A DNA stretch of 64,000 bases from a virus. A program made the translations under genes and the position numbers. The notes below the pieces were generated by a model. It saw only the letters and a program-made list of their open reading frames with translations. It was not told the origin of the DNA and searched no databases. Numbering within the stretch: the stretch's first letter is position 1; each line of letters opens with the position of its first letter. This document shows, one piece after another, positions 790 to 63,116 of this stretch. The DNA lies in IMG/VR virus record IMGVR_UViG_3300014502_000001, positions 28,772-92,771 of that record. One strand, written 5' to 3'.

Positions 790-1817
790 TTTAAGAACTC
801 CATTCCTACCTTATAAAGCCGCTCTGCATCCAGTCCCTCATTGCGAGCCTCAATATATTTCTTAACCACCTGCTCGCGCGAGTCGCCCGCCACTAGCTGA
901 GCACGCACCTTTGCTGCCTTGCTAGATATGAGCGACACTCGTTTCCACTTAATCGTATTCACCCAATCAGGAATTTTATTGCCAGCCACCCTGATCCTGA
1001 AATAGTCCACGTCTGCCCGTCCACCATTGAGATCAGGCACTCGCATATTTTCATCTATGTCAAGAGTTATAAACTGTGGCGACTTGGTGTTCTCCAGAAA
1101 CTGAACAGTATTTTTGTCGGTGTCCAAAAGCCACCAGCCTTTTTTCTGTCCCTCTTCACCGAAATTCTGCATCGTGGGACTGCCAATGCTGATGACATTT
1201 CTTAACACTTTATTTGCGCCGTGAAAATGACCCACAAAACACCAGTCAAATTTCGCTCCTATTTGCTCGGCCGCTAGCCCGCGCTTGGCCACGATGCCAC
1301 TGTACTTCATTCCATATATATCATTGTGAAACACACCAATGGTCTTTGCACTTCCACGCATGTCTGGAATAACTGATATAATGGCATTGGTCTCTTCAAC
1401 GTTCCTGGCAAAGGGATAACATTTGATAGTCCAGCCGTCACGCACCAGCGCTGGAGATCCTGGCATATCAACTATCGTCACCTCTTCAAGAAGATCACGA
1501 AACATCCAAAGCAAAAATGAATTCTTGCTCCAGCCTTTATAGTCGTGATTGCCTGGCACGATGATGAGCTTGGCCAGACCAGAAAGGATGGCAAACTTAT
1601 CAGCGATCAGATATATAACCTGCGAGTCAACGAAATTTTTCAAATGGAAAACGTCGCCAGCAAACACGACACAGTCAGCCTGGTGTTTCCTGATGTCACT
1701 TTCCAGAGCGTCAAATGTCTGGAGCTGTTCATCCAGTCGAGAATTGACCTCATCATCTATCGTGGCAAACTCTTCAAAGTTGTGCCCGTGAAGGTCTGAA
1801 AAAAATATGGCTCTCAT
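786..1817 (-). CDS. sbcD: SbcD/Mre11-type metallophosphoesterase (T4 gp47-like nuclease subunit)
   Basis: 343 residues with the calcineurin-like phosphoesterase motifs in order: D8-x-H10 (FSDLHGH), G54-D55 (AGDVFH), G89-N90-H91-D92 (PGNHDYKG) and a late G-H-x-H (VGHFHG). These bind the two metals used for exonuclease and endonuclease activity. Together with the adjacent SbcC-type gene it would form the end-processing complex that makes 3' single strands for UvsX. The ATG at 1817 overlaps the stop of the flap-nuclease gene (ATGA) and has GGGAGATAGT before it. Length fits the phage gp47 family. Confidence 0.92.
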   Translation of the reverse strand: MRAIFFSDLHGHNFEEFATIDDEVNSRLDEQLQTFDALESDIRKHQADCVVFAGDVFHLKNFVDSQVIYLIADKFAILSGLAKLIIVPGNHDYKGWSKNSFLLWMFRDLLEEVTIVDMPGSPALVRDGWTIKCYPFARNVEETNAIISVIPDMRGSAKTIGVFHNDIYGMKYSGIVAKRGLAAEQIGAKFDWCFVGHFHGANKVLRNVISIGSPTMQNFGEEGQKKGWWLLDTDKNTVQFLENTKSPQFITLDIDENMRVPDLNGGRADVDYFRIRVAGNKIPDWVNTIKWKRVSLISSKAAKVRAQLVAGDSREQVVKKYIEARNEGLDAERLYKVGMEFLK

Positions 1818-2749
1818 ACTATCTCCCTTCCTCTTTTTATCAGCTCCCTTTCCATCTTTATCAACTGCTCAAAAGGCGTCAGAAATATAGCCAGATTCTC
1901 CATGATCTGGTCAAAGCCATATTTCTGGCACACCTCAATCACGCCCGTTGTCAGCTCGTCCTCATTAAAGCCGCCGCCGCTAGCGCCAGCCTGCATCTCA
2001 TCACGCGGGATATAACGAAACTCCATAAGCTGTAACATAAGCGGAAGCTGCTCTTCCATGCGATCCAGAATTTTCATGTCGCTTTCGCTGGGCACCGCTC
2101 CGCGCAGAAATGTTCTGACTAGCCGCCGCGCTGCTACTGGCCCAACACCGCGCACCCCAGGAAGATTGTCCGAGCCGTCACCAACCATGGCCTTGTAATA
2201 TAAATACTCGTTGGCCTCAACACCAAACTCCTTGAGCACCCGCGCTGAGTCATATTCAGCTTTTTTTATTGGGCTCCACACTCTGGTGTTTGGGTATAGG
2301 CCAATCAGCTGGTACATATCCTGATCGGTGCTAATCACCTCAACATCCCATCCACGGATGGGATGTTGATAATAGCTGCAAAGTGTATAAATGACGTCAT
2401 CAGCCTCACGCCCGCGCAGCTTATACTGTTTCAGCCCCATCGCCTCAAATACCTTTTTGGTGCAGCGCAGCTGTTCGAAGAAACATTCCTTCTCGGTTTT
2501 TTCAACCTCAGTCAGCTCGCGAGCCTTTTTCTTTTTTTTGTAATCAGGATATAAAGCCAATCGTGAAGCGTCACGCCCGCCGTCCCAAGTGATGATCAGG
2601 CTGTCGGGATGAAACTTCTCCAAATATGATCTGACCATGGTCAGCGATATTTTCATGACTTCTGTACGCTGGCCTTCAAATTCCATTGGAGCCATTCCAA
2701 AAGCGCGAAAGCCTAGATTATTGCCGTCCAGGATCAGAACAAGCCTCAT
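1814..2749 (-). CDS. 5'-3' exonuclease / flap endonuclease (T4 RNase H-like)
   Basis: 311 residues from the ATG at 2749. The reading frame is open further upstream, but the 2749 start has AAAGGAG six bases before it and overlaps the recombinase stop as TGATG, which decides the start. The FEN family motifs are present: LDGNN around D8, the acidic READD cluster (114-118), STDQDM (140-145), and the helix-hairpin-helix with GDGSDN and GVRGVGPVAA (191-208). It would remove RNA primers and 5' flaps at the replication fork. The phage polymerase is DnaE-type with no Pol I-type 5' nuclease, so a separate enzyme makes sense. Confidence 0.88.
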   Translation of the reverse strand: MRLVLILDGNNLGFRAFGMAPMEFEGQRTEVMKISLTMVRSYLEKFHPDSLIITWDGGRDASRLALYPDYKKKKKARELTEVEKTEKECFFEQLRCTKKVFEAMGLKQYKLRGREADDVIYTLCSYYQHPIRGWDVEVISTDQDMYQLIGLYPNTRVWSPIKKAEYDSARVLKEFGVEANEYLYYKAMVGDGSDNLPGVRGVGPVAARRLVRTFLRGAVPSESDMKILDRMEEQLPLMLQLMEFRYIPRDEMQAGASGGGFNEDELTTGVIEVCQKYGFDQIMENLAIFLTPFEQLIKMERELIKRGREIV

Positions 2750-3720
2750 CACTTCTCCTTTACTACCCATTTCTCATAAGTCGCTGGGAAATCTTTCTCC
2801 AAGAAAACTCTCTTGGAATCAGCAAAGTTATATTCAGCGCCTTCCTTGTGAACGATACTGTGTCTCACAAAGTAATCTAGCAAGCCGCTATATTTGTCTA
2901 TGGGCTCGTCCACCGGCATGATAAAATTCACCTTGCCAAACGGTGGCCCGACCTTGCATTTTTCAACAACGAACATCCCTTCAAAGCCATTCACCTCATC
3001 TGTTTTCTTATTCTTCAGTTTGTGCGTGACAGTGCAGTGGATACGAACAGACGACGTAAATTTCAGTGCCCGCCCGCCGACCGTTGTCGACTTCTCGCCA
3101 TACATAACATTCATCTTATCTCGCAACTGGTTGATGAACACCAGCACGATGTTGTGGCGATATACCTCTGACATGAGTTTTTTCAGGCCATCAGATATAA
3201 CCTTGGCTCTGCGCATGGCCGCTGTGTTCATGCCAAGCTCATTTTCCAGATCTTCCAGTCCTGGTGTAGCTGCCACCGAGTCCCACACGATGGTCAGCAA
3301 AGCGTCTGGTGCATATGCGCGTATGCCTCCCACAGCATCCATCATCACAGTAAAAACGTCCTCAATGCTTTTTAGCTTTTTATTTGGATCGGGATAAATC
3401 AAAGTGCTCATATCCAGACCAGTCAGTGTAGCCAGCCCTGTGTCTAAGCTGCGCTCCACATCAATCAGGACGGCGATCCCCCCAGCCTTTTGTGTCTCGG
3501 CGAGTATGTGGCAGGCAATGCGACTTTTTCCGCTGGAGAAATCACCGAATATTTCGGTCAATCGGCGTGCTGGTATGCCTCCGCCTGTGACCATATCCAT
3601 AGCGATATTTCCTGTTGACACTCTGTAGCCAACTGCCTCTTCCATACGACCAGATAGATCTATCACACCCAGCTTGCTAGCTAGGAGCTTGGGGAGATTC
3701 GCCGTCCTGACTTGCTTCAA
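2749..3720 (-). CDS. uvsX: RecA/UvsX-type strand-exchange recombinase
   Basis: 323 residues. Walker A is GDFSSGKS (59-66), Walker B TIVWDS has D147, and the glutamine-containing motif FINQLRD and the downstream TTVGGRALKF segment match the RecA core. UvsX forms ATP-dependent filaments on single-stranded DNA and starts recombination-dependent replication. Genes for an ssDNA-binding protein and a probable mediator lie directly upstream and nucleases downstream, as expected for a complete pathway. The start codon appears to be TTG at 3720, with AAGGA 9 nt upstream; no better ATG is near. A weak start could hold its level below that of the ssDNA-binding protein. Confidence 0.93.
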   Translation of the reverse strand: MKQVRTANLPKLLASKLGVIDLSGRMEEAVGYRVSTGNIAMDMVTGGGIPARRLTEIFGDFSSGKSRIACHILAETQKAGGIAVLIDVERSLDTGLATLTGLDMSTLIYPDPNKKLKSIEDVFTVMMDAVGGIRAYAPDALLTIVWDSVAATPGLEDLENELGMNTAAMRRAKVISDGLKKLMSEVYRHNIVLVFINQLRDKMNVMYGEKSTTVGGRALKFTSSVRIHCTVTHKLKNKKTDEVNGFEGMFVVEKCKVGPPFGKVNFIMPVDEPIDKYSGLLDYFVRHSIVHKEGAEYNFADSKRVFLEKDFPATYEKWVVKEK

Positions 3721-4912: not shown

Positions 4913-5419
4913 TTATGCCTTTGACGTGTTACGGCCCGGACCCATCTCTGGCTCATTCTCGGAATTCGGCTTGCGGATATAAAGTGTGGAGTCAGCTTGG
5001 ATGCGCATGTTCGATGCAAGCGTCACCAGCATATCCTTGCGGTGACGAAACGCCTCTTTAATAGCGCCTAGCAATCCCACATTTTTACGCGCCACATTCA
5101 CTCTGAGAACTGCCGCGATATAGTCCTCGTCAACCTTGACACTGTTGGCCACCAAATTTTCAGTGACCTTGCCCATCGATGCCAGCTGCTCACGATATTT
5201 CCCATCCAGGGAAGCTGTCGTTGTGTCCAGCTGGAGTTTTGCCTCCGCCAGTGCGGCCTCGGCCATTTCTCCGAGCACCGCATAATAAGCGTAAAGAGAC
5301 GGCTGGTCCCTTAGCTCATTGTTGATCTCCTCCTCTGATAATTTTAATTCGTCCTCATAATCCAGATTGACGGTCTGTTCCTCTGAGATGATGAGAGTCA
5401 GCGGTCCGAGCTTTTCCAT
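4913..5419 (-). CDS. Probable UvsY-like recombination mediator
   Basis: 168 residues, mostly helical. A central charged segment (YAYYAVLGEMAEAALAEAK, then LDGKYREQ) and a C-terminal helix pair (VDEDYIAAVLRVNVARK, then IKEAFRHRKDMLVTLAS) follow the general layout of T4 UvsY, which loads UvsX onto gp32-coated DNA. The gene is directly upstream of the gp32-like and UvsX genes, which supports this. Similarity is by layout and not by long identity, so the call is an inference. The ATG at 5419 has AAGGAG 7 nt upstream and overlaps the previous gene by 22 nt. Confidence 0.5.
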   Translation of the reverse strand: MEKLGPLTLIISEEQTVNLDYEDELKLSEEEINNELRDQPSLYAYYAVLGEMAEAALAEAKLQLDTTTASLDGKYREQLASMGKVTENLVANSVKVDEDYIAAVLRVNVARKNVGLLGAIKEAFRHRKDMLVTLASNMRIQADSTLYIRKPNSENEPEMGPGRNTSKA

Positions 5420-5767: not shown

Positions 5768-8700
5768 TTATTCAACCGGAATAATGCGCAAAAACATATC
5801 TGAAAACACCTTCACCGCCGCGTCCAACTCGGCCCTATGACTAGCATCATAGCTAACCATTGAAGGGTGGATACAATAGACCAGCCACGCACCCAGCGAC
5901 TCACTCCATTCAGCCGTGCCGTTACGATCCATAATGCTAGCCTTATTGTCACCTGTGACCCAATGAAGCGCTGTTTTGCCAAGCGACAATATCAGCCTTG
6001 GCTTTTGCACCGCTATTTCTTTCCTGAGCCACTGAGCACTGCAAAACGCAGGAACGCGCAGATCAACAATCTTATTATCCTTGGGTCTACATTTCAGAAC
6101 GTTGGTCACCCAGAAAAGATCTCTGCTCAGTCCATGCTTATCCAGAGAGCCCCAGAGCGTCCTACCCGCCTTGCCTACAAATGGAAGACCAGAAGCGTCC
6201 TCATCAGCGCCTGGAGCTTCACCAATAATCATGGTCTGGAATATGCCCGCTGAAAAGGGTGTTGGTCTTTTGCATATCTTGTACGCTGGGCAAAGCTCGC
6301 ACTTCTGAATATCAGCGGCCAGATTTATGGCCTCACGGCGTGTGTCAACATACGGCACTATGCCTCTGTAATCAAGCATTCCCAGATCGCCCTTTTTAAT
6401 GTAATCCATAAATTGGAATCGATCCATGAATATGTTTGACGTTTTGGCTGGCTTATTGGCACGCATGATGATCATACGGCTAGCAATTTCTTCAATCTCG
6501 CCCTTTAGCTCTGAATGATATAGCTTGCCAGTCACCGTTGAATAGGTCAGAGAAGTGTCGTCTCTAAATATGCCATAGCAGCCGCCCAGGTCTGACGCAT
6601 ATCCTTTAACATCCACATCACTGCCCGTGCCGTGCGACTGTTCCACCTTTTGCCTGAATCCAAACTTGATCTCATCATATTTGCCAATGTGATAAGAGTA
6701 TTCCGGTATGGCCTCGTTCTCTCGGCCGGACAGATATGAAAGCTTCTTCACGCGGAAGTGTCTGCTCAGCAGCTCCACAAGAGCCTTATTCTGGGTGAGA
6801 TATTCCTCTGGCATTTCATAGGCTAGCACGTCTGTCTCGACATATGCAGAAGCGTCAATATCCTTATATTGCTTCTCGCTGGTGGGAAACTTTTTCTTAG
6901 TCTCAAGATGCAGAACAAGCTTTTTGCGATCCTCTTCAGATATGATTGAATCCAGAGCCTTGGAGCGCAGCAGGACTCTGATCTTTCCGATGTTGATCAA
7001 GCGCCTAGGAATATTGGCCGCAAAGTCAAATATGTCCTCAAATTTACCGCCGTGCGCCTCCCGCGCCTTTACCAGCTCCAGGGCGGAGTTGGTACTGATA
7101 CCTTTGATGATATCAAAGCCGCCGCGCAGCACGCCTGTATCTTCAATCGTCCATGAATATCCCGAGCAGTTAATGTCGGGAGATTTGATCTTCATGCCAT
7201 GACGCTGAGCATCAGACAACAGTGGCACGATGTCATCGTCCGAGGCTCGTACCAGAGTAGCATGGAAAAACTCTGTGGGATAATATACCTTTAACCACAT
7301 CGTCCAATATCCCAGCATCGTATATTCAACCGAGTGAGACTTATTGAAGCCATATGAATTATGGCTGACAAAATTGTTCGCGATGAAATTTGCAGGCTCT
7401 TCTTCCATCTCCATATCATAGGTCTCTCTCTCGCCTATAAACTTCTTCTCCACAATCTCCTCATCCTGAGTGAAATATCCTACACGATAGCGCCTGAACA
7501 AAGCGCTGTCAGTGTACGCTCTGTGATGCTTTCTGCAAAGAAGCATCGTGTTGTCCTCGGAATTGTCGGTCGTGTCGCCATTGATATGATGCATTTCAGG
7601 AAAACTCCCGGAGCCACAGACCTGGCAGCGACCACCATACTGATCCACAAGATGCTCACGACGCGCTTTTTCCTCATTAGTCGGACCCTCGCCTTTTCTG
7701 AATCTAGGACAAGTCTGGCCAAAGGACCCCGAGCCATATCCTTCTCCGTGTAATTTCTTCGGCAATTTCAGATCGCTGACTCTGATTCTGTCACCGACAC
7801 TGATCTCAGAAACTGTCTTCCACTCTCCACCAACCATAAAATGGTGCTCAGCGCTAGCGCGAACTGTTTTGTTACCGGCTGTCCTTATCAGATATACAGG
7901 CTTCATCCCTGTCTTCCATACTCTCTTTATCGTATTGTAACGGACAAATCCATCATCATGCATCGATAGAATTTTCAAGCCACGACGCTTGAAATTATAA
8001 TTATCCTGATACTTATACGCCTCCTCAATAGTCATCTCGGAATCTTTGTGCTGATTAGAAGCACACCTGTATATTTTTGTATCACCAGTCAGGCATCCGA
8101 AGAATTTCATCAGCGTAAAAACCTTCTGGGCATCAGCCACCGACATGGTTCCAAGCTTTTGAACGCCCGCCAGCCAGTCTTTTCTGAATGTCTCAAACTT
8201 ATCCTGGCCCTCAGATTTAGAAACTACCTTTCTGATGACATCCACCGTGCGCCAGGGGATGCCAGAAAGCTTATTCAGAATCCTCATCATCTGCTCTTGA
8301 TAAAGAACGATGCCATATGTCTCGCCCAGCAGCTCTTTCATCTGAGCATTGATATAAGTTGGCTTTTCCACGCCGTCTTTATAAAGAATGAATTTGCTAG
8401 CCATACCGCTGCGCAGCGTGCCAGGTCTAAATAATGAATTCACCTGCACGAGCTCGTTGAAATTTTTAGGCTTAAAGTTGCGGATATACTGAATCATGCC
8501 CGCTGAGCCAAACTGAAATATGCCCGCCGTATCAGCCTTTGTAAAAGCCTCAAGCACTTTTGGGTCATCCAGCGGCAGCGTTGAATAATCAGCGACCACA
8601 TTGTGACGGCGCTTTATCTCCTCTTTAGCTAGGCGCAGGATATTCAGCGTCTTCAGACCCAGAGCGTCTATCTTCATTACGCCGGCAAATTCAATATCAT

Positions 8701-10315
8701 GCTTGTCCCAGTTGACCGCTAAATCGCCAGACTTGGTTTTCACCACAACACATTTGTGGCCTGAATATAAGTCCTCGACATCCACAACCAGACCCGCCGC
8801 GTGAACACCTTTAGTCTTAATGTTACCTTCGATCTTTTTGCAGATCTGGATAACATAGGGATATTTCTTATTAAACTCCTTAGCATTTTCGAACAGTGCC
8901 ACTGTGTCCTCAACAGAAAAGTCAGCTCGCGCATCGCCGCCTGACCTGACCAGAATCTGTTTGGCTATTTGATCCACCTCAACCAGCGGCACCGAGAACA
9001 CTCGTGACACGTCACGCACTACGCCGCGCCCCTTCATCGTGGAAAAGGTGCTCACAGCCGTCACAGAACGCTCACCATATTTGTCACGCATGTGCTGAAT
9101 AACACGGTCGCGCTCAGCATCCTCAAAATCCAAATCGATATCTGGCAGATCGTGACGCTCTGGGGAAATGAAGCGCTCAAACATCAGCCCATACTCGAGT
9201 GGATTCACGTCGGTGATGCCCAGCAAATATGCCACCAGACTTCCACCCACAGAGCCGCGTCCAGGACCCACCATACAGCCATTGTGTTTAGCCCACAGAA
9301 CCATTTCCTGAACAAGCAGAAAATATTCCGCAAAGCCTAGCTTGATGATCTCTCCCAATTCATATTCACAGCGCTCTACCACTTCCTCTGTACCCAGGGA
9401 CTCAACATTCTCTATGACGTTGAAACACTGCTCACGCAAATATGCGCCAGGATCTTCACGCGCTTCCTCATAGGCTAGCGGCACACTGACCTTGCCCGCC
9501 TTAAATTCCCATGTGCACTTAGCCGCCACCTCATCCCAGATCTCTGCCATCATCAGCTCTGAGTTCTTGAACCCAAGCTCCTGCGCACAGACCACCATTT
9601 CCTCATATGTTTTAAGATGCAGATCAGCCATATCTGCGGGCGCGGGCTCGTTAGGTAGCATCTTCTGGTTGAAGCTCAAGCGCCTTATGACCTCACGCGC
9701 TTGCCAGTCCTCTGGCTTTATATAATGGACATCACCAGTGAATATGATCTTACCACCCATCAGCTCCTGCATATCTCTGAGCAGTTGACTATACTCCCTC
9801 TGGGGAAGATAGTTCTTGAGCATTGGAGCTTCCCAATAAAAGTCGTCACCAAATTTATCCATGATCTGCGGAACCAGGTCACCCATATTTGGATGAGCCA
9901 GCACACCCTCTGTGCAAGCCGTCAAATATACACAGTCCTGTATCTCGCTCAAGAGATATTTCCAGTCAATACGCGGACGGATATAAAAGCCTTCTGTATT
10001 GGCCTTTGTTAAGGCACGCATGATGGAGCTAAAGCCGTTGCTATTTTTGGCCAGCAGCACAGCATGCCAGCGCCGCTTATCGCTGCGGTCAGCCAAATCA
10101 TCAACGACATAAAACTCGCAACCCAAAATGGGATTTGCGCCTGCCTTTTTAACGGTCTGATAAAACTGAATAGCTCCATCCACCGTTCCATGATCAGTTA
10201 AGGCTATGTCCTTAATGCCATATCCCTTGATCACAGCATCAAGCTGATCAATGCGAATGATGGAATCTTGAATCGAGAACTCTGAATGGAAATGGAAAGC
10301 GCTAACAGGCTTCAT
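5768..10315 (-). CDS. dnaE: DNA polymerase III alpha (DnaE-type) with HNH intein and C-terminal family-4 uracil-DNA glycosylase
   Basis: 1515 residues. A PHP domain is at the N-terminus (H8-x-H10, TDHG at 40-43). The polymerase core follows, with GPGRGSVGGS (350-359), catalytic PDIDLDF (D392, D394) and KIDALGL (D550), all matching the C-family triad. An intein occupies 741-986, then the core resumes at SYGFNKSHS. A helix-hairpin-helix region (RRLINIGKIRVLL) is near 1104-1116. From about 1330 a separate domain carries every family-4 UDG mark: C1339/C1342, GEAPGADED (1365-1373), GLPFVGKAG, NVLKCRP with C1409, C1425 and IHPS (1482-1485). The four cysteines would hold a 4Fe-4S cluster. The polymerase part would be the phage replicase. 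No separate proofreading exonuclease is evident in this window. Confidence 0.95.
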   Translation of the reverse strand: MKPVSAFHFHSEFSIQDSIIRIDQLDAVIKGYGIKDIALTDHGTVDGAIQFYQTVKKAGANPILGCEFYVVDDLADRSDKRRWHAVLLAKNSNGFSSIMRALTKANTEGFYIRPRIDWKYLLSEIQDCVYLTACTEGVLAHPNMGDLVPQIMDKFGDDFYWEAPMLKNYLPQREYSQLLRDMQELMGGKIIFTGDVHYIKPEDWQAREVIRRLSFNQKMLPNEPAPADMADLHLKTYEEMVVCAQELGFKNSELMMAEIWDEVAAKCTWEFKAGKVSVPLAYEEAREDPGAYLREQCFNVIENVESLGTEEVVERCEYELGEIIKLGFAEYFLLVQEMVLWAKHNGCMVGPGRGSVGGSLVAYLLGITDVNPLEYGLMFERFISPERHDLPDIDLDFEDAERDRVIQHMRDKYGERSVTAVSTFSTMKGRGVVRDVSRVFSVPLVEVDQIAKQILVRSGGDARADFSVEDTVALFENAKEFNKKYPYVIQICKKIEGNIKTKGVHAAGLVVDVEDLYSGHKCVVVKTKSGDLAVNWDKHDIEFAGVMKIDALGLKTLNILRLAKEEIKRRHNVVADYSTLPLDDPKVLEAFTKADTAGIFQFGSAGMIQYIRNFKPKNFNELVQVNSLFRPGTLRSGMASKFILYKDGVEKPTYINAQMKELLGETYGIVLYQEQMMRILNKLSGIPWRTVDVIRKVVSKSEGQDKFETFRKDWLAGVQKLGTMSVADAQKVFTLMKFFGCLTGDTKIYRCASNQHKDSEMTIEEAYKYQDNYNFKRRGLKILSMHDDGFVRYNTIKRVWKTGMKPVYLIRTAGNKTVRASAEHHFMVGGEWKTVSEISVGDRIRVSDLKLPKKLHGEGYGSGSFGQTCPRFRKGEGPTNEEKARREHLVDQYGGRCQVCGSGSFPEMHHINGDTTDNSEDNTMLLCRKHHRAYTDSALFRRYRVGYFTQDEEIVEKKFIGERETYDMEMEEEPANFIANNFVSHNSYGFNKSHSVEYTMLGYWTMWLKVYYPTEFFHATLVRASDDDIVPLLSDAQRHGMKIKSPDINCSGYSWTIEDTGVLRGGFDIIKGISTNSALELVKAREAHGGKFEDIFDFAANIPRRLINIGKIRVLLRSKALDSIISEEDRKKLVLHLETKKKFPTSEKQYKDIDASAYVETDVLAYEMPEEYLTQNKALVELLSRHFRVKKLSYLSGRENEAIPEYSYHIGKYDEIKFGFRQKVEQSHGTGSDVDVKGYASDLGGCYGIFRDDTSLTYSTVTGKLYHSELKGEIEEIASRMIIMRANKPAKTSNIFMDRFQFMDYIKKGDLGMLDYRGIVPYVDTRREAINLAADIQKCELCPAYKICKRPTPFSAGIFQTMIIGEAPGADEDASGLPFVGKAGRTLWGSLDKHGLSRDLFWVTNVLKCRPKDNKIVDLRVPAFCSAQWLRKEIAVQKPRLILSLGKTALHWVTGDNKASIMDRNGTAEWSESLGAWLVYCIHPSMVSYDASHRAELDAAVKVFSDMFLRIIPVE
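5771..6328 (-). other. Family-4 uracil-DNA glycosylase domain fused to DnaE (residues about 1330-1515)
   Basis: Domain within the polymerase gene, in the same frame with no stop or frameshift between them. It has the full catalytic set of family-4 UDGs: the acidic GEAPG loop, the Asn of NVLKCRP and the His of IHPS, plus four Cys positioned for the iron-sulfur cluster. It should therefore be able to remove uracil, or at least bind it. Known UDG-polymerase fusions that I recall are in phage family-A polymerases of the SPO1 type; this one is on the C-terminus of a C-family polymerase. Confidence 0.88.
7358..8095 (-). mobile_element. Intein with HNH homing endonuclease inside dnaE (residues 741-986)
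   Basis: 246 residues, starting with C741 (block A CLTGDTKIY) and ending with H985-N986 before extein Ser987. A block-B-like segment has S821-x-x-H824. The insert contains an HNH endonuclease: CQVC at 897-900, MHHINGD at 908-914, then LCRKHH. It splits the exteins between G740 and the SYGFNKSHS motif of the polymerase, two residues from the insertion point of the cyanobacterial DnaE inteins as I remember it. All splice residues are present, so splicing should work and the endonuclease looks intact. Confidence 0.93.
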
Positions 10316-11239: not shown

Positions 11240-11977
11240 TCAGCTCTTCACGAAATCTTTGATGCTCTGGACATATTTGCCTTCCACCGTTTCCAGCTTA
11301 GGCTTAAAGCCGCAGCCCTCGGCGTGAGGACAAAAGCCGATATGCTCGCACGGCTTTTTGAACATGGGCCTGAATACGTCACCCATTTTCAGGCACACTT
11401 CCTCAATCATCAGAGCACTGACTTCTCGAATTTCTCCCTGAGCCATCAGACAAAGGCGCGAGGATAAAAATGTCGAGAGATTGCGGAAGTTGATTGCCAT
11501 CGTAATGGGTGAATGGATATTCAGCGGTAAAAGGCCGCGTGCCACTTGCACCTTTTCACCACGCTGAATAAGATGATTGTAGATGTCTTCGACCTTGAGC
11601 ATGGATTGCTCATAGGCCATAGGATCTATAACGTCGGGAGGCGTATGGTAGTCACCCGCCGTAGCAAAGCCTTCCTTGCTCACCACGCGCAAACTCTGGA
11701 TGGAATATGCGGCGGTGCGGTGACGCGTGAGCTGCTGCTGAAAGGCACGACTCACATTTCTGAACAGCCAGTTGGTCAGGATGAATTCCTGCACGCCGCC
11801 CGTCAGCGGCTCGGCAGCCATGTACTCGACAAAATCATTTTCCAGCTGCCGACTGACATGGCCCATAAACAGCGGATCATCAGAAACTTGACCGTGCATG
11901 TTCTTAAAAGCGAACAGCATTGTCCTCAAAGGCTCCGGCGTAAAATTGAAAAGAATGACCTGTGCGGTCTTACTCAT
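11240..11977 (-). CDS. thyX: Flavin-dependent thymidylate synthase ThyX
   Basis: 245 residues. The diagnostic ThyX motif RHR-x7-S is present (R85-H86-R87 to S95), with the following LR. ThyX makes dTMP from dUMP using FAD, NADPH and methylenetetrahydrofolate. The C-terminus has an additional Cys/His-rich stretch (CEHIGFCPHAEGC) that may be structural. It has its own promoter just upstream and AGGAG before the ATG. It supplies thymidine for phage DNA and fits with the MazG-like and UDG functions in this operon. Confidence 0.95.
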   Translation of the reverse strand: MSKTAQVILFNFTPEPLRTMLFAFKNMHGQVSDDPLFMGHVSRQLENDFVEYMAAEPLTGGVQEFILTNWLFRNVSRAFQQQLTRHRTAAYSIQSLRVVSKEGFATAGDYHTPPDVIDPMAYEQSMLKVEDIYNHLIQRGEKVQVARGLLPLNIHSPITMAINFRNLSTFLSSRLCLMAQGEIREVSALMIEEVCLKMGDVFRPMFKKPCEHIGFCPHAEGCGFKPKLETVEGKYVQSIKDFVKS

Positions 11978-13319: not shown

Positions 13320-14293
13320 GATTGGTTCTCCTTGGATTTTTGCTGTTCCATTTTCTTCAGCCAGGTAGGAACATATATGACCTTTTTTGTGGCCAGGTCG
13401 ATCATAGGTCGCTGGCTCATTGTGGCCCAGCGATCCGACTTCATGCGCATTTCCTGCATGTAGTTGCAAACGTCTTTTGCAAAATTGCCCGTCTCTTTGT
13501 GAAAGGTATTCCACATCAGATCCAGCCACCGCGTGCCACCCGCGAAATATGGCGACCGCCCTAGCTGCTCAATTTCACAATGGCGCGTAAAAGCGCAGCG
13601 GCTGTTTGTGTACCACTTAGGCGAGAAAAATGCATTGACGTCGATATCACGCATGCCAAAGCCTAGACCAGGATTATACCAGTGATAGGCGCAGCCCGCG
13701 TAAAGAACATATCCTCGCACGTTGGCAATTTTCTTAGGATTCTTTTTGTGCAGGAACTCTTCCATCATAGATATGGCTTTCTTCCGAATGCGCGTCAGAT
13801 TCTTTTTGTCCTGATGCCAGTCGTAATTGCGATACGTGCTGAGTGTTTCAGCATCATATATTTTCTCTTCCAGCTGTGGATTGCCCAGCTTCACGATAAA
13901 CTCTTTCAGCTTAACTGGATTACCGGCAGGGTGTTTGCCATATCTGACAATGGTGGGGAATCCAGGCTTGACCGGGATGTTGGGATATTTCACCACATAG
14001 TCCACGTCATATAGCAGCGCTAGCTGGCGCATCTGATCCACCATTTCATAGCCCTTACGCGGGTGGATATAGTACCACAGAAAAACAAACTTGCGTGCCA
14101 TGCTAGTCAGCAGATCGAACATGGGCTTGCCATGCTCGTCCTGCGCATAAACGTGATCCTCGCCATCAATGTCGTTGACGACATAAACCTTAGACTCTGG
14201 GAAATGATCCTGAAATTTGACCGCCATCGCGATCGTCACATCCAGAATCTTTTCCTCGTCCTCATCAGGATTAACCACAATCACATCATTCAT
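13316..14293 (-). CDS. Hypothetical protein, possibly nucleotidyltransferase-like C-terminal part
   Basis: 325 residues. The N-terminal half is α/β. The C-terminal half contains GMRDIDVNAFFSPKW, where RDIDV resembles the metal-binding D-x-D of nucleotidyltransferases; this is weak evidence. Both ends overlap neighbours (ATGA at 14290-14293 and 13316-13319), so it is translated with the flavoprotein and the 113-residue gene. No confident family. Confidence 0.55.
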   Translation of the reverse strand: MNDVIVVNPDEDEEKILDVTIAMAVKFQDHFPESKVYVVNDIDGEDHVYAQDEHGKPMFDLLTSMARKFVFLWYYIHPRKGYEMVDQMRQLALLYDVDYVVKYPNIPVKPGFPTIVRYGKHPAGNPVKLKEFIVKLGNPQLEEKIYDAETLSTYRNYDWHQDKKNLTRIRKKAISMMEEFLHKKNPKKIANVRGYVLYAGCAYHWYNPGLGFGMRDIDVNAFFSPKWYTNSRCAFTRHCEIEQLGRSPYFAGGTRWLDLMWNTFHKETGNFAKDVCNYMQEMRMKSDRWATMSQRPMIDLATKKVIYVPTWLKKMEQQKSKENQS

Positions 14294-15519
14294 TTGTACT
14301 TCTCCACGACCTTAGCAGATTTTTCCCAATACATTTTTTCAAAGTCCGCTGTATCAAAACCAAACAGCAGATATATTGAAAGTAGGAACTTGAAGATATC
14401 CGTCAGCTCCTCAAGGATCCTTTCCCTGTCCAGCTTTACCGCACCAGGCTTGCTGCCGAACTTCCAGTTGATGGTGTCCAGGAAGTCATTGCTCTCGCTG
14501 AATAGATGGAGAACGTAGTTTTTAGCCGCCCGTTGGACGGCCTCTAAATCTGGCGCATAGCTAACAAACTTCCTGTTGAACGCTTTCTGATCGCTGAATA
14601 TGCTCTCCATAAAAAATTTATTGGAGCTGCGCTGAATAACTGCCTTCATCGTGATGTCAGGATTCCACTCGCCATAGCGCCCGAGGAACATCACGTTGGG
14701 TGGAGCTATGTTTTCATGGCTGCGCAGAATCCGAGCTCCAGGCATAATAATGGAATCCTGAAAAGGCAAAGAACCTTCAATGGCGATGACGTCTCCTTGT
14801 AGCACCTTGGAACGCCGCACTCGATCAAAGCCAAATTTCTCCTCAGGGAAATATACCATGGACTCTTCGGGCAGCTCCGGATAGCCACATCCTAGCCACT
14901 GGTCATCTGACATCGTGCCCGTATAAAGTGGAAACGACATCAGCACCTTATGCTCGGCGTGTGGGCCTTCATAAATCTTCCAGAATACATTCGCAGGAAT
15001 CGTACTCACCAGATGGCTGTATTCCAGCGCCTTATCATTATCCAGAACAATCTGCTTTTCAGATATGGAGACAACCTTTCTGTTAATCACTCTTTTCTCA
15101 GCCAGCCTATAGTGAAGCAAATCCAGCAGTGTTTTGGCACTAAGATGATATGTGTGCATAAGGCCGCGATCACCGCTCACGTATGGGCCGGCAAGGATGT
15201 CCTCAGCAGGGAATAAAGACGGTGGCCGCTCATGGCCGCTGAGCTTTTTCTTCATCAGGTCACGCTTTACATCATCAGGTGGTTCACCCTGATTATATTT
15301 TCCGTCCTTGAAATATCCGATGGTGATGTCCAACTGCGACGAGCTTATATCCAGGTCAGCCAGGAACTCGTCGCACGCCTTACACTTAGGCAGGATAAGG
15401 CTGTGTTGAAAGCTAGCCACGTCCGACTGCGCGCCCGCCGCTGGAGCAATTCTGGTGTACTCTGGATTGTAAAACTGAAAAATTTTAGCACTCAACCCAT
15501 TACCAAGTATAATCTTCAT
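14290..15519 (-). CDS. Flavoprotein-like domain fused to MazG/dUTPase-like domain
   Basis: 409 residues from the ATG at 15519, which overlaps the endonuclease stop (TGATG) with AAGGAG upstream. The N-terminus has a dinucleotide-binding loop (MKIILGNGLSA) and later the THLSAKTLL and LVSTIPANVFW-type segments seen in FAD-dependent oxidoreductases of the amine-oxidase/galactopyranose-mutase type. The last 45 residues (365-409) hold EELTDIFKFLLSIYLLFGF then EKSAKVVEKY, the metal-binding helix pattern of all-alpha NTP pyrophosphatases (MazG/dUTPase-2). The fusion is unusual. A role in cleaning the nucleotide pool is likely for the C-terminal part; the substrate of the flavin part is unknown. Confidence 0.6.
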   Translation of the reverse strand: MKIILGNGLSAKIFQFYNPEYTRIAPAAGAQSDVASFQHSLILPKCKACDEFLADLDISSSQLDITIGYFKDGKYNQGEPPDDVKRDLMKKKLSGHERPPSLFPAEDILAGPYVSGDRGLMHTYHLSAKTLLDLLHYRLAEKRVINRKVVSISEKQIVLDNDKALEYSHLVSTIPANVFWKIYEGPHAEHKVLMSFPLYTGTMSDDQWLGCGYPELPEESMVYFPEEKFGFDRVRRSKVLQGDVIAIEGSLPFQDSIIMPGARILRSHENIAPPNVMFLGRYGEWNPDITMKAVIQRSSNKFFMESIFSDQKAFNRKFVSYAPDLEAVQRAAKNYVLHLFSESNDFLDTINWKFGSKPGAVKLDRERILEELTDIFKFLLSIYLLFGFDTADFEKMYWEKSAKVVEKYK

Positions 15520-16064
15520 CACACTTCTCCTTGCAAAAGAATCGCTGGAGAAAAATACTCTCCGACTATAATCCATCTGAAATATTCCTTCCAGCGTTTT
15601 CTATTTGAATTAACTTTAATATTACAACCAGTACAAAGCTCTATCAAATTATTAGACCAATTATGCTTTTTATTGTAATCAATATGATGAACAGGATGTC
15701 TTCTTTTTCCCTCTTTAGTGTTACAAAGCTGACATATATGACCGTCACGATCACGAATTTGCTCTCGCAATTCAGGCGTCCATCTTGTACCATATTTTTC
15801 AGAGCTCTTGCCGCCCAGCCAGCTAGGATGATTCACAGGATCTACAAAACGTCGTATCTGAGCTAAACTCTGTTTTGCAATTGTTTCTTCACTATGCTGC
15901 TTACCGAGATTACCGTGTGCATTCACATTACCAAGTTTTGCAAGACTCATCTTTGCTCGTGTATTCTTGCTGTGTTTTCTGCCATAGAAAGGATTATTTG
16001 CACCAGCAGTAATCAGACTTATTTTAATCTTGGCCTCTTTGCTGTGGTGACTTCCCTTTCTCAC
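15519..16064 (-). mobile_element. Free-standing HNH homing endonuclease with NUMOD3 repeats (HNH-1)
   Basis: 181 residues. Three NUMOD3-type DNA-binding segments are at the N-terminus (HSKEAKIKIS, HSKNTRAKMS, HSEETIAKQS). An HNH domain follows: CQLC, HHIDYNKKHNWSNNL and CTGC. It starts with GTG at 16064, overlapping the upstream stop as GTGA, with AAGGAG before it. It ends at TGATG with the flavoprotein gene. It is related to the genes at 54.2 and 63.1 kb. It is a separate gene, not in an intron: both neighbours are complete. Confidence 0.9.
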
Positions 16065-50406: not shown

Positions 50407-51600
50407 TTATCTAGCGTTTGGCCAACCGCGCACAGGCAGACCCTGAGAACGCTTCTGCATCTTCAGCTGGAATCCACCCATTCTTTCTGCATGGGTTTTG
50501 AGAGTGCGCATGGCAAGCTTATTTATCTTGTTCTCAGCTTTAGCCTTAACACCAGCCATCTGAATTTTGGCTTTTGCATCATTGTGAATTTTTACCATCT
50601 TAGGAGATGACTTCCACTGGCTCAGCCATCTTTTCTTTGATATGCCAGCAGGAGCGCCGTGCTCCTTATTCATGTTCTTGCTAGATATGCCCCACTTCAT
50701 GCCTGGAACGCCGTACTCCTGAACAGCATTCTCGCTAGGTCCTTGCAGAGCTTTCACCTTATCAATTCTGGTTCTGAGAGTACCAGCCCTTTTGCTGAAA
50801 CGCTGAATTTTTTTATCAGCCCGCTGAGCAGCGAATCCACCTCTGGCCGCATTGAGTTCTCTGTTAGCGGTGCTAAGATAAAATTTATTTGTATTTATGT
50901 GACCTTGGATATTTCTCAGAAGCTCTTTTTTTCGCTGACCCCATTTCATGCCTTGAACGCCGTACTCGTTTATTTTAGATTCACGTGCCATCCGACCGGA
51001 ATAGAAGCGTGACATGGAACCTGGCGCATGACGTACCACCGTCACTCCATTCATTCTGGTTTTAGATATGACTGCACCCTTTGGTCCCATACGGAATCCT
51101 GTATTGACATTGGCTGTCCTTTTCTCGAGACCAACCTTATAAAGAAATACACTAGCATTTTTGAGTCTATCCAGAGCTGAGCCGTGACCCAATGACTGAG
51201 GATTCCGCAATGCAGTCATCTGCTTGTGCAGACCTCCCTTGGCTAACCACGCAGCCCGACCAGCAGTGACACCCCATTTCATGCCTTGAACGCCGTACTC
51301 GGAGAGCTTGGATTCATAATATGTACCACCAAGATTGCCCTTGACCTTTGTCATGCCAAGTTCTTTATACATAGCGGCCATTTGCCCACGATTCTGGATA
51401 GCACGGATGCGGCCTATCATCTTTTTATTCACTTGTAATATGCGAGTCTGGCCTAGCTTGGTGCGAGCGCTCTTCAGACTTTGTCTTGTCCTGACAGCAA
51501 TGCGTGTAGCTGTCTGAAGATTGTTCTCGCCCGCCCGCCGCGTTCCCCATTTCATTCCTTGAACGCCGTACTCGTGAAGGATTATATTTGCAAGTTGCAT
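50407..51600 (-). CDS. Basic head polyprotein with four EYGVxGMKWG motifs
   Basis: 397 residues from the ATG at 51600 (AAAGGAG six nt upstream; overlaps the GIY-2 end by 19 nt). EYGV[QP]GMKWG occurs at 10-19, 101-110, 212-221 and 295-304, dividing the protein into four Lys/Arg-rich helical segments of 83-111 residues. In front of each is [L/I/V]-x-E (LHE, LSE, INE, VQE), resembling the T4 gp21 cleavage consensus. The YGVxGMKWG motif occurs in head-region proteins of other phages, without a function that I know. The most likely picture is an internal head protein cut into basic pieces by the prohead protease. Confidence 0.7.
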   Translation of the reverse strand: MQLANIILHEYGVQGMKWGTRRAGENNLQTATRIAVRTRQSLKSARTKLGQTRILQVNKKMIGRIRAIQNRGQMAAMYKELGMTKVKGNLGGTYYESKLSEYGVQGMKWGVTAGRAAWLAKGGLHKQMTALRNPQSLGHGSALDRLKNASVFLYKVGLEKRTANVNTGFRMGPKGAVISKTRMNGVTVVRHAPGSMSRFYSGRMARESKINEYGVQGMKWGQRKKELLRNIQGHINTNKFYLSTANRELNAARGGFAAQRADKKIQRFSKRAGTLRTRIDKVKALQGPSENAVQEYGVPGMKWGISSKNMNKEHGAPAGISKKRWLSQWKSSPKMVKIHNDAKAKIQMAGVKAKAENKINKLAMRTLKTHAERMGGFQLKMQKRSQGLPVRGWPNAR

Positions 51601-52253
51601 TCTAGACTCCTTTGCGCCCATGCTCGCTCTGCAGACACGCTCATTCTGTGGCGCGTCTCTTGAGAAAAAATTTGCCTGCTACGTGATTCACGCAGTTTCT
51701 TGCAAGTTCTGAGGGAGACAATCTTTCCTTTTTGCGTTTCACTTATTTTTCTTCTGGTCTCTTTAGAGACGCAATGACCCTTTAGTGATTCACTCATCTT
51801 TATACGCGTCTCATGAGAAATAATTTTTCCTTTGTGCGCCTTACTTATTTTTCTTTTAGTCTCTTTGCAAAGATGCTTACCAAACAAATAATGTTTTTGG
51901 CCAGATACGATTGCACTCAGCTTCAATCTTGTCTCAGTACTAGGATTCAGAATACCATCACCGCCGTCGGTGGAATTAGTTAGTCTGTAACCTAGCGCTC
52001 TATACTTTTTAATCATTGCCATTTCATCAGTATTCCATATTGCATTGCCTTTCAGCAATCCAATTCTAACTTCGTAGCCTTTAGCATAAACAGATCTGAT
52101 CCAGCGAGCAGCATAAGTATCAGATTCATCAGTCAGATTTCTCCTGTGGCCTCTCAATCTCACAGTCAAACGATGCTTAGTCTGACCAATATATCTCATT
52201 CCAGAATTACCAGGCTCTGTGGAATAGAGATAATAAACTTTGATATCACTCAT
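51582..52253 (-). mobile_element. Free-standing GIY-YIG homing endonuclease with NUMOD3 repeats (GIY-2)
   Basis: 223 residues. YYLYS then MRYIGQTKHR is the GIY-YIG core; from about 110 onward four or more NUMOD3-type repeats follow (KETKRKISKAHKGK, HETRIKMSESLKG, KETRRKISETQKGK, QETRHRMS), which bind DNA along the minor groove. ATG overlaps the upstream stop (ATGA). The gene end overlaps the start of the motif-repeat gene, whose ribosome site is inside it. Confidence 0.92.
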
Positions 52254-53478: not shown

Positions 53479-54236
53479 AATTGCTCTCCAAAAATCTCCA
53501 GCGAATGGCGCTTTATAGCCTCTGGGTGCTCACCCGTAAATGGAACAGCAGGAGAGCTCCCAAGCGGGTCGTTCTCATATTTTTCCCAGACCTCTTTGTA
53601 ATAAACTTCCCACGGCGTGTCGGCAGGATAGCCGTCCTTAGCGTATTCTCCACGCTTTAGATATTCCTGCACCCTAAAACGCTGACGCTCTTTGGACTGC
53701 GCCATTGAGTAGTGGTACACATATACACCAGGAATCAAAACCTTATACCTTAAGACTTTGCCCAGCTGCTCATGTCTAAATATAGGCGTCCTGCCGGCAG
53801 TGTGCCAGTACTCGTCTCCTCCGATAAAATGCGGACTGCCAATAAAATGATTCCAGCGAACACTGAAAGAGCCCACATCATCAGGAGCCGACTGGATGGC
53901 CTCAACCACCCGCCGTATGCCGTCCTCTGAATATGCCTCATCAGCGTCTTGTGACAGTACCCAGCAGTCGAACTCTTTGGGGATTCCTTTCAGATATACT
54001 TTTTCCTGTCCAAAGAAGTCGTGCGCCCCACTGGGAAGCTTCCACGTTCCCGCTTCATAAAAAGTTATCTTGCTACCGAATTTCTTTATGATGTCCAGGG
54101 AGCCGTCGGTGGAAGGACCAAAGCGTGAGCCGTCCACAATACAGAATCCATCGACATGATTGATGGTGCTTTCAATACATGATTGCAGTATAGGACCAGC
54201 ATTATAGACCATCATACCAACATACAGCTTGTTCAT
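53475..54236 (-). CDS. Glycosyltransferase family 2
   Basis: 253 residues. GT-A fold: VGMMVYNAGPILQSCIESTI at the start and SQDADEAY, a D-x-D sugar-nucleotide/metal site, near residue 94. It belongs to the glycan island between capsid and connector genes. Overlaps both neighbours (ATGA). Acceptor unknown; virion proteins or host surface glycans are candidates. Confidence 0.82.
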   Translation of the reverse strand: MNKLYVGMMVYNAGPILQSCIESTINHVDGFCIVDGSRFGPSTDGSLDIIKKFGSKITFYEAGTWKLPSGAHDFFGQEKVYLKGIPKEFDCWVLSQDADEAYSEDGIRRVVEAIQSAPDDVGSFSVRWNHFIGSPHFIGGDEYWHTAGRTPIFRHEQLGKVLRYKVLIPGVYVYHYSMAQSKERQRFRVQEYLKRGEYAKDGYPADTPWEVYYKEVWEKYENDPLGSSPAVPFTGEHPEAIKRHSLEIFGEQL

Positions 54237-54802
54237 ACTGCTAACTCCTCAGATTCCTTTTGTCCTTTTAGCCATTGGAAAAATGCTGGCCAGTAGGATC
54301 TATGATAGTTAGCTTTAGTGTTACAAGCAATACAAAGCGTGATAAGATTTTCGTGACTGCAATTCTTCTTGTCATAATCAATATGATGCACGTCGTGTCT
54401 TTTGCCATTCTCTGACACACTACATATCTGACAAATCCTGCCATCCCTTTCACGAATTTGCTCTTTAAGTCTTTCACTCCAATCAAGACTATAAGGCTCA
54501 AAACTTTTGCCGCCTTGCCAGCAACCATTACCAGCACCACTTCTCTTCTCGCGAGTTTCTTCGCTGACAGGAGGCCTGCTAGCTGCAGACAGTCTCATTT
54601 TTTCTTTAGTATATTCACTATGGTGTTTCCCCAGCATGCCTACATTCTCATTGCCCAGCGCATTCTTGTTACCTGTAGCAGCAAGACTCATTCTCTCTAA
54701 CCACTCAGAAGAAAAAGGTGGTCTCTTCTTGCCAGCCCAATAGCCTATACGACCAGCCATTTTGGCTATTGCCTTTCTATTATGGTGACTACCTTTTATC
54801 AT
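54233..54802 (-). mobile_element. Free-standing HNH homing endonuclease with NUMOD3 repeats (HNH-2)
   Basis: 189 residues from the ATG at 54802, 1 nt after the methyltransferase stop, with AAGGAA upstream. NUMOD3-type units (HHNRKAIAKMAG, HSEYTKEKMRLSA) and HNH core: CQICSVSENGKRHDVHHIDY, then CIACN. Very similar to HNH-3 at 63.1 kb, including the WPAFFQWLKGQKES segment. Ends with ATGA to the glycosyltransferase. Confidence 0.9.
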
Positions 54803-54803
54803 A

Positions 54804-55535
54804 TCAGCCGTTCCTTGTAAGACCAAAAGCAATCCACCCTTCTGCAACTGGTGCATGAAGCTCTTCAGAGTTATTCCAGATCTGTGAAAACCAAAAACGA
54901 AATTTGTTTCTCTCGTGAAATCGTCGTGCCCACCACATCGTATCATACATCGAGACATGCTCTCTCGTCAGTCCTTCATGAGAAAGATCAGCCTGACCAG
55001 GCTCAGCCCCGAATGATGGAACAGGCAAACGAAGAAGAATGCTATATTTAGCTACACGACTAATTTCGCTAACAGCAGGCATTATTTCTTCAATGTAAAG
55101 ATGTTCCAGCACATCAAAGGCGCAGACGAGATCAAAGCTGCTGTCTGCAAACATATTCATGTCGGTGATGCTGACAGGATATATCTTGTCGCGCACGCGC
55201 TCGGGAGCATGCTCGATGGCGGCTTTTGAAATATCCACACCCGCCGCCCGCCAGCCTATGTCCTGAAATGCTGCTGGAATAAATCCGAAGCTGCAGGCAC
55301 AGTCCAGTATGCTTTGGCACCTGGTGAAATAGCGCTTGATGAACTCAACCTTTTTCAGGGTCTCGTTCTTGGTGACTGGATCATTTTCATCAGGGAAGGA
55401 GTTGAATCTGGCACCCCAGTATTCGCCCCAATAATCGGCGTCGTAAAAAGCCGCCGTAGAACGCACCTTCCGCGATTCGGCTTGCTTGCGGCACTGAATT
55501 TCCAGAAGCTCTTTTTCCTGCTTTTCAGTCATCAT
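54804..55535 (-). CDS. Class I SAM-dependent methyltransferase
   Basis: 243 residues. ILDCACSFGFIPAAFQDIGW is motif I with the following GVDIS as acidic loop, and FDLVCAFDVLEHLY is the motif II/III region. The sequence resembles small-molecule or glycan methyltransferases more than DNA ones (no NPPY/DPPY). Being inside the glycan island, it may O-methylate a sugar. ATGA overlap with the glycosyltransferase fusion. Confidence 0.82.
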   Translation of the reverse strand: MMTEKQEKELLEIQCRKQAESRKVRSTAAFYDADYWGEYWGARFNSFPDENDPVTKNETLKKVEFIKRYFTRCQSILDCACSFGFIPAAFQDIGWRAAGVDISKAAIEHAPERVRDKIYPVSITDMNMFADSSFDLVCAFDVLEHLYIEEIMPAVSEISRVAKYSILLRLPVPSFGAEPGQADLSHEGLTREHVSMYDTMWWARRFHERNKFRFWFSQIWNNSEELHAPVAEGWIAFGLTRNG

Positions 55536-61991: not shown

Positions 61992-63116
61992 TTATCTCAC
62001 TGCTGATCGTCTGTGACCACCGAAGGCTCTCATGAGTCGAAGATTATCAGAAGACAGTCCCTTTCCTGTCGCTGATCTCCAGGACTTGGGTGTGCCGCCG
62101 CTCTTTGCTGTTTTAGCAGCAGCCTGCGCCTTGTTGCTCTGGCCAATGGTGGTGCGCTGGCTCTGCGGCATTCTGCCATACTTGCCGGCATCGGGAAATC
62201 CCTTTCCGCCAGTTTTGGCATATTCCTTTTTATAGAATTTGTCGCTGGCCTTGGCCATTTTGGCCTGCGCAATATTCTTTTCCAGTCCTCTATTCAGTGG
62301 ATTATGCGTGCCCCACTTCATGCCTGGAACGCCGTACTCGGAGACCGCAGATTCTGCGGCTGGCTTAGCGCCCTTCTTCTTAGCCAGATATGCAGCAAAA
62401 CCTGGATTCATGCCTTTCTTTTTCTTGCCACCTTTGGCAGCAGGAGCAGCCGCCGCTTTAGGGTCGGCAGCGGCAGCGGCTGGCTTAGCGCCCTTTTTCT
62501 TAGCCAGATATGCAGCAAAGCCTGGATTCATGCCTTTTTCTGCTACAGCCGCCGCGCCGCCCTTAGCCCGCGCCAGAGCGCGATGCTTAGCCGCTGAGCG
62601 ATGGAATTTGTATTTGGTCGTAGAATCGGACGCAGCAGCTTTCTTTTTCTCTAGACCTTTGGCTATTGCCACGTGGTCCTTGGCCTTGAGATTGGCAAAT
62701 GCCTCACTGACGGCAGCTGCAGTCTGGAGCAGATGTTCAGTCCTGTTCTTTATTACAGATCTTGCATAGGAATTTCTTTCTCCTCTTGCAATTCCATGCT
62801 CTCTGCCATAATTTCTGGAAGCTTTTGCCGAGCGTGCCGCCGAAAAACGAGCTAGTATTTTATTTCCCTGGCCGTGACGATCGACAAATGTCTTTACAAG
62901 ACCAGAGAATTTTGCCTTCATCCCAGGAGTTTTTGCAGCATGCAATTTATCAGAAGCTCTGTTGAATCCCTTAAGACCGCGATCAGCTCTTCTCAGACCA
63001 GAAGCTTCTGATGGTCTTCTGCTCCCCCACTTCATGCCTGTTACGCCGTACTCCGCCAGTGCGGGAGCGCACTTTTGGAGTGTGTTGCAGATGCGCTCAG
63101 ATATAAGCTGGTTCAT
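61992..63116 (-). CDS. Lys/Ala-rich head protein with two EYGVxGMKWG motifs
   Basis: 374 residues, very basic. EYGVTGMKWG at 22-31 and EYGVPGMKWG at 260-269, preceded by LAE and VSE, again like gp21 cleavage sites. An internal 20-residue repeat starting GMNPGFAAYLAKKKGAK lies at 195-214 and 235-254, with an Ala/Lys linker. The composition resembles histone-like DNA-packing proteins. It is upstream of the protease gene. ATGA overlap with HNH-3 end, AGGAG before the ATG. Confidence 0.7.
   Translation of the reverse strand: MNQLISERICNTLQKCAPALAEYGVTGMKWGSRRPSEASGLRRADRGLKGFNRASDKLHAAKTPGMKAKFSGLVKTFVDRHGQGNKILARFSAARSAKASRNYGREHGIARGERNSYARSVIKNRTEHLLQTAAAVSEAFANLKAKDHVAIAKGLEKKKAAASDSTTKYKFHRSAAKHRALARAKGGAAAVAEKGMNPGFAAYLAKKKGAKPAAAAADPKAAAAPAAKGGKKKKGMNPGFAAYLAKKKGAKPAAESAVSEYGVPGMKWGTHNPLNRGLEKNIAQAKMAKASDKFYKKEYAKTGGKGFPDAGKYGRMPQSQRTTIGQSNKAQAAAKTAKSGGTPKSWRSATGKGLSSDNLRLMRAFGGHRRSAVR
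62355..62534 (-). repeat. Two near-identical 60-bp direct repeats in the Lys/Ala-rich head gene
   Basis: 62475-62534 and 62355-62414 encode the same 20 residues, 40 codons apart. The DNA differs at a few third positions, so the duplication is recent or kept alike. Confidence 0.85.

What the first reader, a model, noticed from the sequence alone, without database searches (positions are those of the whole stretch)
5768..10315. Replicative DnaE polymerase fused to a family-4 uracil-DNA glycosylase
A single frame carries a full C-family polymerase (PHP, D392/D394/D550) and a complete family-4 UDG with FeS cysteines and catalytic loops. Fusion would bring uracil removal or sensing to the fork. 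I know of UDG-like domains on phage family-A polymerases but not on DnaE.
Basis: partly seen in the sequence, partly recalled or inferred. Interest (0 to 1): 0.82.

Follow-up and report, generated by a model that had tools for sequence, protein, structure and literature searches.

The report
Phage replicase with built-in uracil remover
A phage DNA-copying enzyme carries in the same chain a domain that, by its conserved active site, should cut the wrong base uracil out of DNA; the fusion has been reported before, but here it belongs to a large phage family in which the uracil domain usually looks intact rather than worn out.

Summary
Window 5768-10315 (minus strand) is one open 1515-aa frame: PHP, C-family polymerase, HHH and OB-like regions and a family-4-type uracil-DNA glycosylase (UDG) at the C-terminus. 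Assembly error is excluded: the same DnaE-UDG architecture occurs in 91 distinct sequences from IMG/VR and named phages. In an E. coli-rooted DnaE tree they form one clade, with at least four losses of the UDG and several independent degenerations of its active site. The window's UDG keeps every residue shown to matter in Thermus UDGa and four iron-sulphur cysteines; its PHP domain keeps all nine metal ligands. The Pseudomonas/Rhizobium/SSU5-type branch has lost both sets. The architecture is not new: Timinskas et al. (PMC3919608) reported a DnaE with UDG replacing OB and CTD in Yersinia pestis and Salmonella strains; the SSU5-type phage form, tested here, is degenerate. Not found described: the intact form, its breadth and its single origin. 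Most likely mechanism, inferred: uracil excision coupled to phage replication. No activity was measured.

The parts
5768..10315 (-). DnaE-intein-UDG precursor gene, 1515 aa
9884..10297 (-). PHP domain (res 7-144 by Pfam); all nine metal ligands of the PHP consensus present (HHDHEHCDH: H8 H10 D17 H42 E67 H84 C134 D195 H197; the last two lie beyond the Pfam match)
   Evidence: ligand list from PMC3666897
8657..9442 (-). DNA_pol3_alpha (res 292-553) with D392, D394, D550
8156..8650 (-). finger domain, first part (res 556-720); the conserved region continues after the intein
7358..8095 (-). Intein, res 741-986 (246 aa): FFG|CLTGDTKI...FIANNFVSHN|SYGFNKSHS
   Evidence: (TIGR01445 over cut-off)
7502..7678 (-). 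HNH endonuclease region inside the intein (about res 880-938)
   Evidence: several PHROG HNH families
6920..7198 (-). HHH_6 region (res 1040-1132)
6407..6709 (-). OB-like beta region (about res 1203-1303), absent from several relatives
   Evidence: weak Foldseek matches to ExoVII, PolD and lysyl-tRNA synthetase
5795..6328 (-). Family-4-type UDG domain (res 1330-1507): E1366, A1367, E1372, F1379, N1405, N1414, H1483; Cys 1339, 1342, 1409, 1425
4913..5419 (-). Small conserved gene found downstream of DnaE-UDG in many relatives; homologous to a protein annotated UvsY in phage Cyrano
3726..4901 (-). gp32-like single-strand binding protein
2749..3720 (-). RecA/UvsX-like recombinase
1814..2770 (-). 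5'-3' exonuclease
11240..11977 (-). ThyX thymidylate synthase
14290..15576 (-). Protein with a C-terminal dUTPase_2 / NTP pyrophosphohydrolase domain

Best explanation
A replicative phage DnaE polymerase that carries a catalytically competent family-4-type UDG as its C-terminal domain, where host DnaE has its tau-binding tail. After the intein splices out, one chain of about 1269 aa would combine synthesis, PHP proofreading and uracil excision. The UDG, held near the template and nascent duplex, would remove dU misincorporated from dUTP or made by cytosine deamination during replication; the abasic site would be finished by host repair or phage recombination. Shown: architecture, completeness of the active sites, clade, purifying selection. 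Inferred: splicing, activity, position at the fork, purpose.
For: One open frame with all domains over Pfam cut-offs. UDG model (pLDDT about 96 over most of that domain) best matches family-4 T. thermophilus UDG 1ui0, TM 0.88 on the target. Every residue with kinetic support in Tth UDGa (E41, E47, F54, N80, N89, H155; G42 as the natural Ala) is present (PMC5387724). About 20 diverged relatives keep the E/N/H set. UDG dN/dS is 0.04-0.20 in close pairs, like the polymerase core. The UDG sits in the DnaE frame in 27/27 records searched, and no record holds a separate one. The phage encodes ThyX and a dUTPase_2-like protein, so it probably makes thymine DNA. Full-length model of relative L056 matches DnaE and UDG structures in one chain. 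Precedent for UDG at forks: UNG2 through PCNA and RPA (PMC8053108).
Against: No assay. The UDG scores below NCBIfam's family-4 cut-off (84 bits against 125). Several relatives have dropped the domain or its catalytic residues, so it is dispensable in some phages. Excision in single-stranded template would block the fork, and no AP-endonuclease gene of two families was found in the record, which may be incomplete.
Confidence: 0.6

Rival explanations
1. Read-ahead sensor: the UDG pocket recognises template uracil and stalls or signals, with excision minor or absent, in the manner of archaeal family-B polymerases.
For: The domain replaces the region (OB/CTD) that in bacterial DnaE contacts template or clamp loader (own knowledge). 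UDG domains with altered catalytic residues are kept under purifying selection.
Against: The window and about 20 relatives conserve H155, whose loss in Tth UDGa lowers k2 by over three orders of magnitude while leaving Km nearly unchanged (PMC5387724); a pure sensor would not need it. The degenerate forms lose N80 as well, the residue that reads uracil, so they should not sense uracil either.
Confidence: 0.15
2. Structural or DNA-binding role: the UDG fold stands in for the missing OB/CTD as a DNA or partner-binding module, and catalysis is incidental.
For: The Nickie/SSU5/Rhizobium branch keeps the fold without E41, N80 or H155, and partly without iron-sulphur cysteines, at purifying dN/dS in the pairs tested. 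In that branch UDG follows HHH with no OB region between.
Against: Does not explain the conserved catalytic set in the window's branch, nor why the window keeps both an OB-like region and the UDG.
Confidence: 0.2
3. Policing of uracil-containing competitor or host DNA rather than repair of the phage's own DNA.
For: Some phages use uracil DNA (PMC7824862); a UDG would harm it.
Against: A domain on the phage's own replicase acts first on its own template; ThyX next door points to thymine DNA.
Confidence: 0.03
4. Assembly or frameshift artefact joining two genes.
For: The window is from a metagenomic virus record.
Against: Same junction in 91 distinct sequences and in complete genomes of isolated phages.
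Confidence: 0.01

Closest known systems
DnaEX with UDG in some Yersinia pestis and Salmonella enterica strains (Timinskas et al., PMC3919608, Fig. 3); Salmonella phage SSU5 and Escherichia phage Cyrano carry this type
   Same: C-family polymerase with a C-terminal PF03167 domain; in Cyrano DnaE-UDG is followed by UvsY-like, gp32-like and exonuclease genes, a set also found downstream in the window
   Different: SSU5/Cyrano UDG lacks E41, N80, H155 and the iron-sulphur cysteines, and the SSU5 PHP metal set is gone. The window has both complete, an OB-like region before the UDG, and an intein. That SSU5 corresponds to the published bacterial copies is from memory, not tested.
Pseudomonas phage nickie/hairong and Rhizobium phage RHEph10-type DnaE
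   Same: DnaE-UDG fusion in isolated phages
   Different: UDG active site and PHP ligands degenerate
Family-A phage polymerases with N-terminal UDG (Thermus phage phiLo, PDB 9qhs; Pseudomonas phage PMBT14)
   Same: UDG fused to a phage polymerase; their UDGs group with the DnaE-fused ones in a small tree (0.99)
   Different: Other polymerase family, and the UDG is at the N-terminus
Family-4 UDG (T. thermophilus UDGa 1ui0)
   Same: Fold, uracil pocket, four iron-sulphur cysteines
   Different: Stand-alone enzyme; window domain about 29% identical over the structural alignment

Membership tests
C-family DNA polymerase (DnaE) | PHP, Pol3 alpha core with three catalytic Asp, fingers, HHH | tested here: met
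   relative L056 by fold
C-family DNA polymerase (DnaE) | C-terminal tau-binding CTD (typical of DnaE1) | tested here: not met
   UDG lies there; no CTD match reported. The CTD is optional in the family (PMC3919608).
Active polymerase PHP | nine metal ligands | tested here: met
Family-4 UDG | UDG superfamily fold closest to family 4 | tested here: met
Family-4 UDG | four iron-sulphur cysteines | tested here: met
   C1339, C1342, C1409, C1425
Family-4 UDG | E41, G/A42, E47, F54, N80, N89, H155 | tested here: met
Family-4 UDG | NCBIfam TIGR00758 curated cut-off (125 bits) | tested here: not met
   84 bits: filed as divergent, family-4-like
Family-4 UDG | uracil excision from ss and ds DNA | not testable with these tools
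   needs assay
UdgX | extended motif-3 loop with the cross-linking His (H109) | tested here: not met
   motif-3 stretch KCRPKDNKIVDLRVPAFC has no insertion and no His
Intein | N- and C-terminal splicing motifs, Cys1, His-Asn end, Ser+1 | tested here: met
   splicing itself not tested

The most novel reading that the evidence does not exclude
A widespread phage replicase clade in which one chain polymerises, proofreads through PHP and excises uracil as it copies, so that base excision starts inside the replicase; the active site was later lost in several lineages that kept the fold for another role.
Probability: 0.4. Interest if true: 0.75.

Novelty: new variant of a known kind. Interest (0 to 1): 0.5.

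Why it matters
How uracil is dealt with at the fork, before or after copying, is debated and is usually studied through loose contacts (UNG2 with PCNA or RPA). A covalent polymerase-UDG makes that question directly testable in one protein, and the clade supplies natural active-looking and inactive-looking versions for comparison. It also corrects the impression, from a few bacterial records, that the DnaE-UDG fusion is a rare oddity.

Tried and rejected
Assembly error: rejected. UdgX-like cross-linking: rejected, no loop insertion or His. A scan of IMG/VR with the window's UDG sequence alone found nothing; alignments were needed. A link between intact UDG and lack of dUTPase: the three Rhizobium phages with degenerate UDG have a trimeric dUTPase and none of the intact-UDG records does, but the counts are small, shared by descent and from partial contigs; left as a lead. 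Cellular origin: of 19 hits in a collection of 84,980 cellular genomes, 18 are not fused to DnaE (one of these is cut by a contig end); the exception (L252, Syntrophaceae MAG) sits on a 4-kb contig and is probably phage. Full-text searches gave no description of the intact form; most subscription papers, including one on viral replicases that I looked for (10.1093/nar/gkr581), are not held. The window's own UDG is placed with weak support inside the UDG tree.

Full report
Check. The gene is the minus-strand frame 10315-5768, 1515 aa, open throughout. Pfam gives PHP, DNA_pol3_alpha, finger, Intein_splicing, HHH_6 and UDG, all over their curated cut-offs.

The intein. Residues 741-986 (246 aa) begin CLTGDTKI and end VSHN before SYGFNKSHS; the insert has splicing motifs over the NCBIfam and Pfam cut-offs and an HNH core. 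Relatives carry inteins a few residues away at FNK|SHS and at two other sites. The mature polymerase-UDG should be about 1269 aa.

UDG. phmmer and Foldseek both place the domain nearest family-4 enzymes (1ui0, E 1.8e-21; TM 0.88 on the target, rmsd 2.4). The model of residues 1131-1515 has pTM 0.81, with pLDDT about 96 over most of the UDG and an OB-like beta region before it. Using residues with kinetic support in T. thermophilus UDGa (PMC5387724), the window has E1366, A1367, E1372, F1379, N1405, N1414 and H1483 at E41, G42, E47, F54, N80, N89 and H155, plus four cysteines. The UdgX His loop is absent. The domain scores below the NCBIfam family-4 cut-off, so I call it family-4-like.

Distribution. 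Named phages read here: nickie, hairong, RHEph10, V1VFA-S, RHph_Y2_11, SSU5, Cyrano, ANB28. IMG/VR scans with DnaE-based and UDG-based alignments, together with the first five named phages, the window itself and one cellular contig, give 116 loci, 91 distinct C-terminal sequences, with both domains in one frame. Of 77 new viral loci found by the UDG alone, 70 are fused in one frame, six are cut by a contig end and one has frame breaks. Pfam's own UDG model is over its cut-off inside the DnaE frame of 27 of 27 records, and no record has a separate UDG; one record has two DnaE-UDG copies.

Evolution. In a FastTree LG tree of 90 polymerase cores rooted on E. coli DnaE, all fusions fall in one clade (0.96; its first branch, L039, lacks UDG). 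Within it the UDG was lost at least four times (L105/L106; the L020-L028 group; L035; L043), and catalytic residues were lost in several places (L001; L031; L108; L014/L030; the Nickie-Rhizobium branch). SSU5 shares the last state by sequence but was not in that tree. Sampling favours UDG-bearing sequences, since scans kept the best 80 matches to fused queries. PHP ligands are complete in every member examined on the window's side and in L014, also where the UDG is degenerate, and lost throughout the Nickie/Rhizobium/SSU5 side. UDG dN/dS is 0.04-0.20, similar to the polymerase core, in pairs with intact and with degenerate UDG alike, so the degenerate domain still does something. UDGs on phage DnaE and PolA group together apart from the cellular ones sampled (0.99), a lead for a shared origin.

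Context. Downstream of DnaE-UDG in the window come a small gene of no match, a small gene homologous to Cyrano's 'UvsY' (31%, 2e-11), a gp32-like SSB, RecA, a 5'-3' exonuclease and an SbcD-like phosphoesterase. SSU5, Cyrano and ANB28 share parts of that set in similar order. ThyX and a dUTPase_2-like domain lie on the other side. No AP endonuclease of two families was found.

Mechanism. Most likely the UDG excises dU produced or met during phage synthesis. Cleavage rather than sensing is favoured for this copy because H155 and N80 are conserved; the side of the fork on which it acts cannot be told from sequence. For the degenerate branch uracil reading itself is probably gone and a structural or DNA-binding role is likelier.

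Known and new. Timinskas et al. wrote that in some Y. pestis and S. enterica strains an additional DnaE has OB and CTD replaced by an archaeal-type UDG domain (PMC3919608). The architecture is therefore known. Not found in the literature held: that a catalytically complete-looking version exists, that it is common in phages, that it has a single origin with repeated decay, and that its PHP is intact too.

Noticed in passing
window 7358-8095; L014, L030, L037, L051, L119, L181, L224, L231, L242: Phage DnaE genes carry inteins at several closely spaced sites around FNKSHS (FG|SYGFNKSHS in the window, FNK|SHS in others), and at two more sites further upstream; L231 and L242 seem to hold two each.
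   Followed up: partly
window 14290-15576: A 428-aa protein with a C-terminal dUTPase_2-like domain and an N-terminal part of another kind (flavoprotein-like by eye); a similar arrangement occurs in the record of L023.
   Followed up: partly
window 15519-16064, 51582-52253, 54233-54958, 63113-63661; L012 92-796, 3274-3984: Several small genes that look like free-standing homing endonucleases (GIY-YIG or HNH style by eye) are scattered through this phage.
   Followed up: no
L110, L112, L114, L117, L120, L124, L129, L134: This part of the degenerate-UDG branch keeps its own conserved motif set (SDxPxWQEE and similar, T[TS]LVK, INxxQI), as if the pocket had been re-purposed.
   Followed up: partly
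IMG/VR record of L115 (G017, 215,656 bases): Two DnaE-UDG genes in one viral record; possibly two phages in one contig.
   Followed up: no
records of L115, L120, L129, L009, L010: Divergent Thy1 (ThyX) matches in long ORFs of about 290-370 aa, in some degenerate-UDG phages.
   Followed up: no
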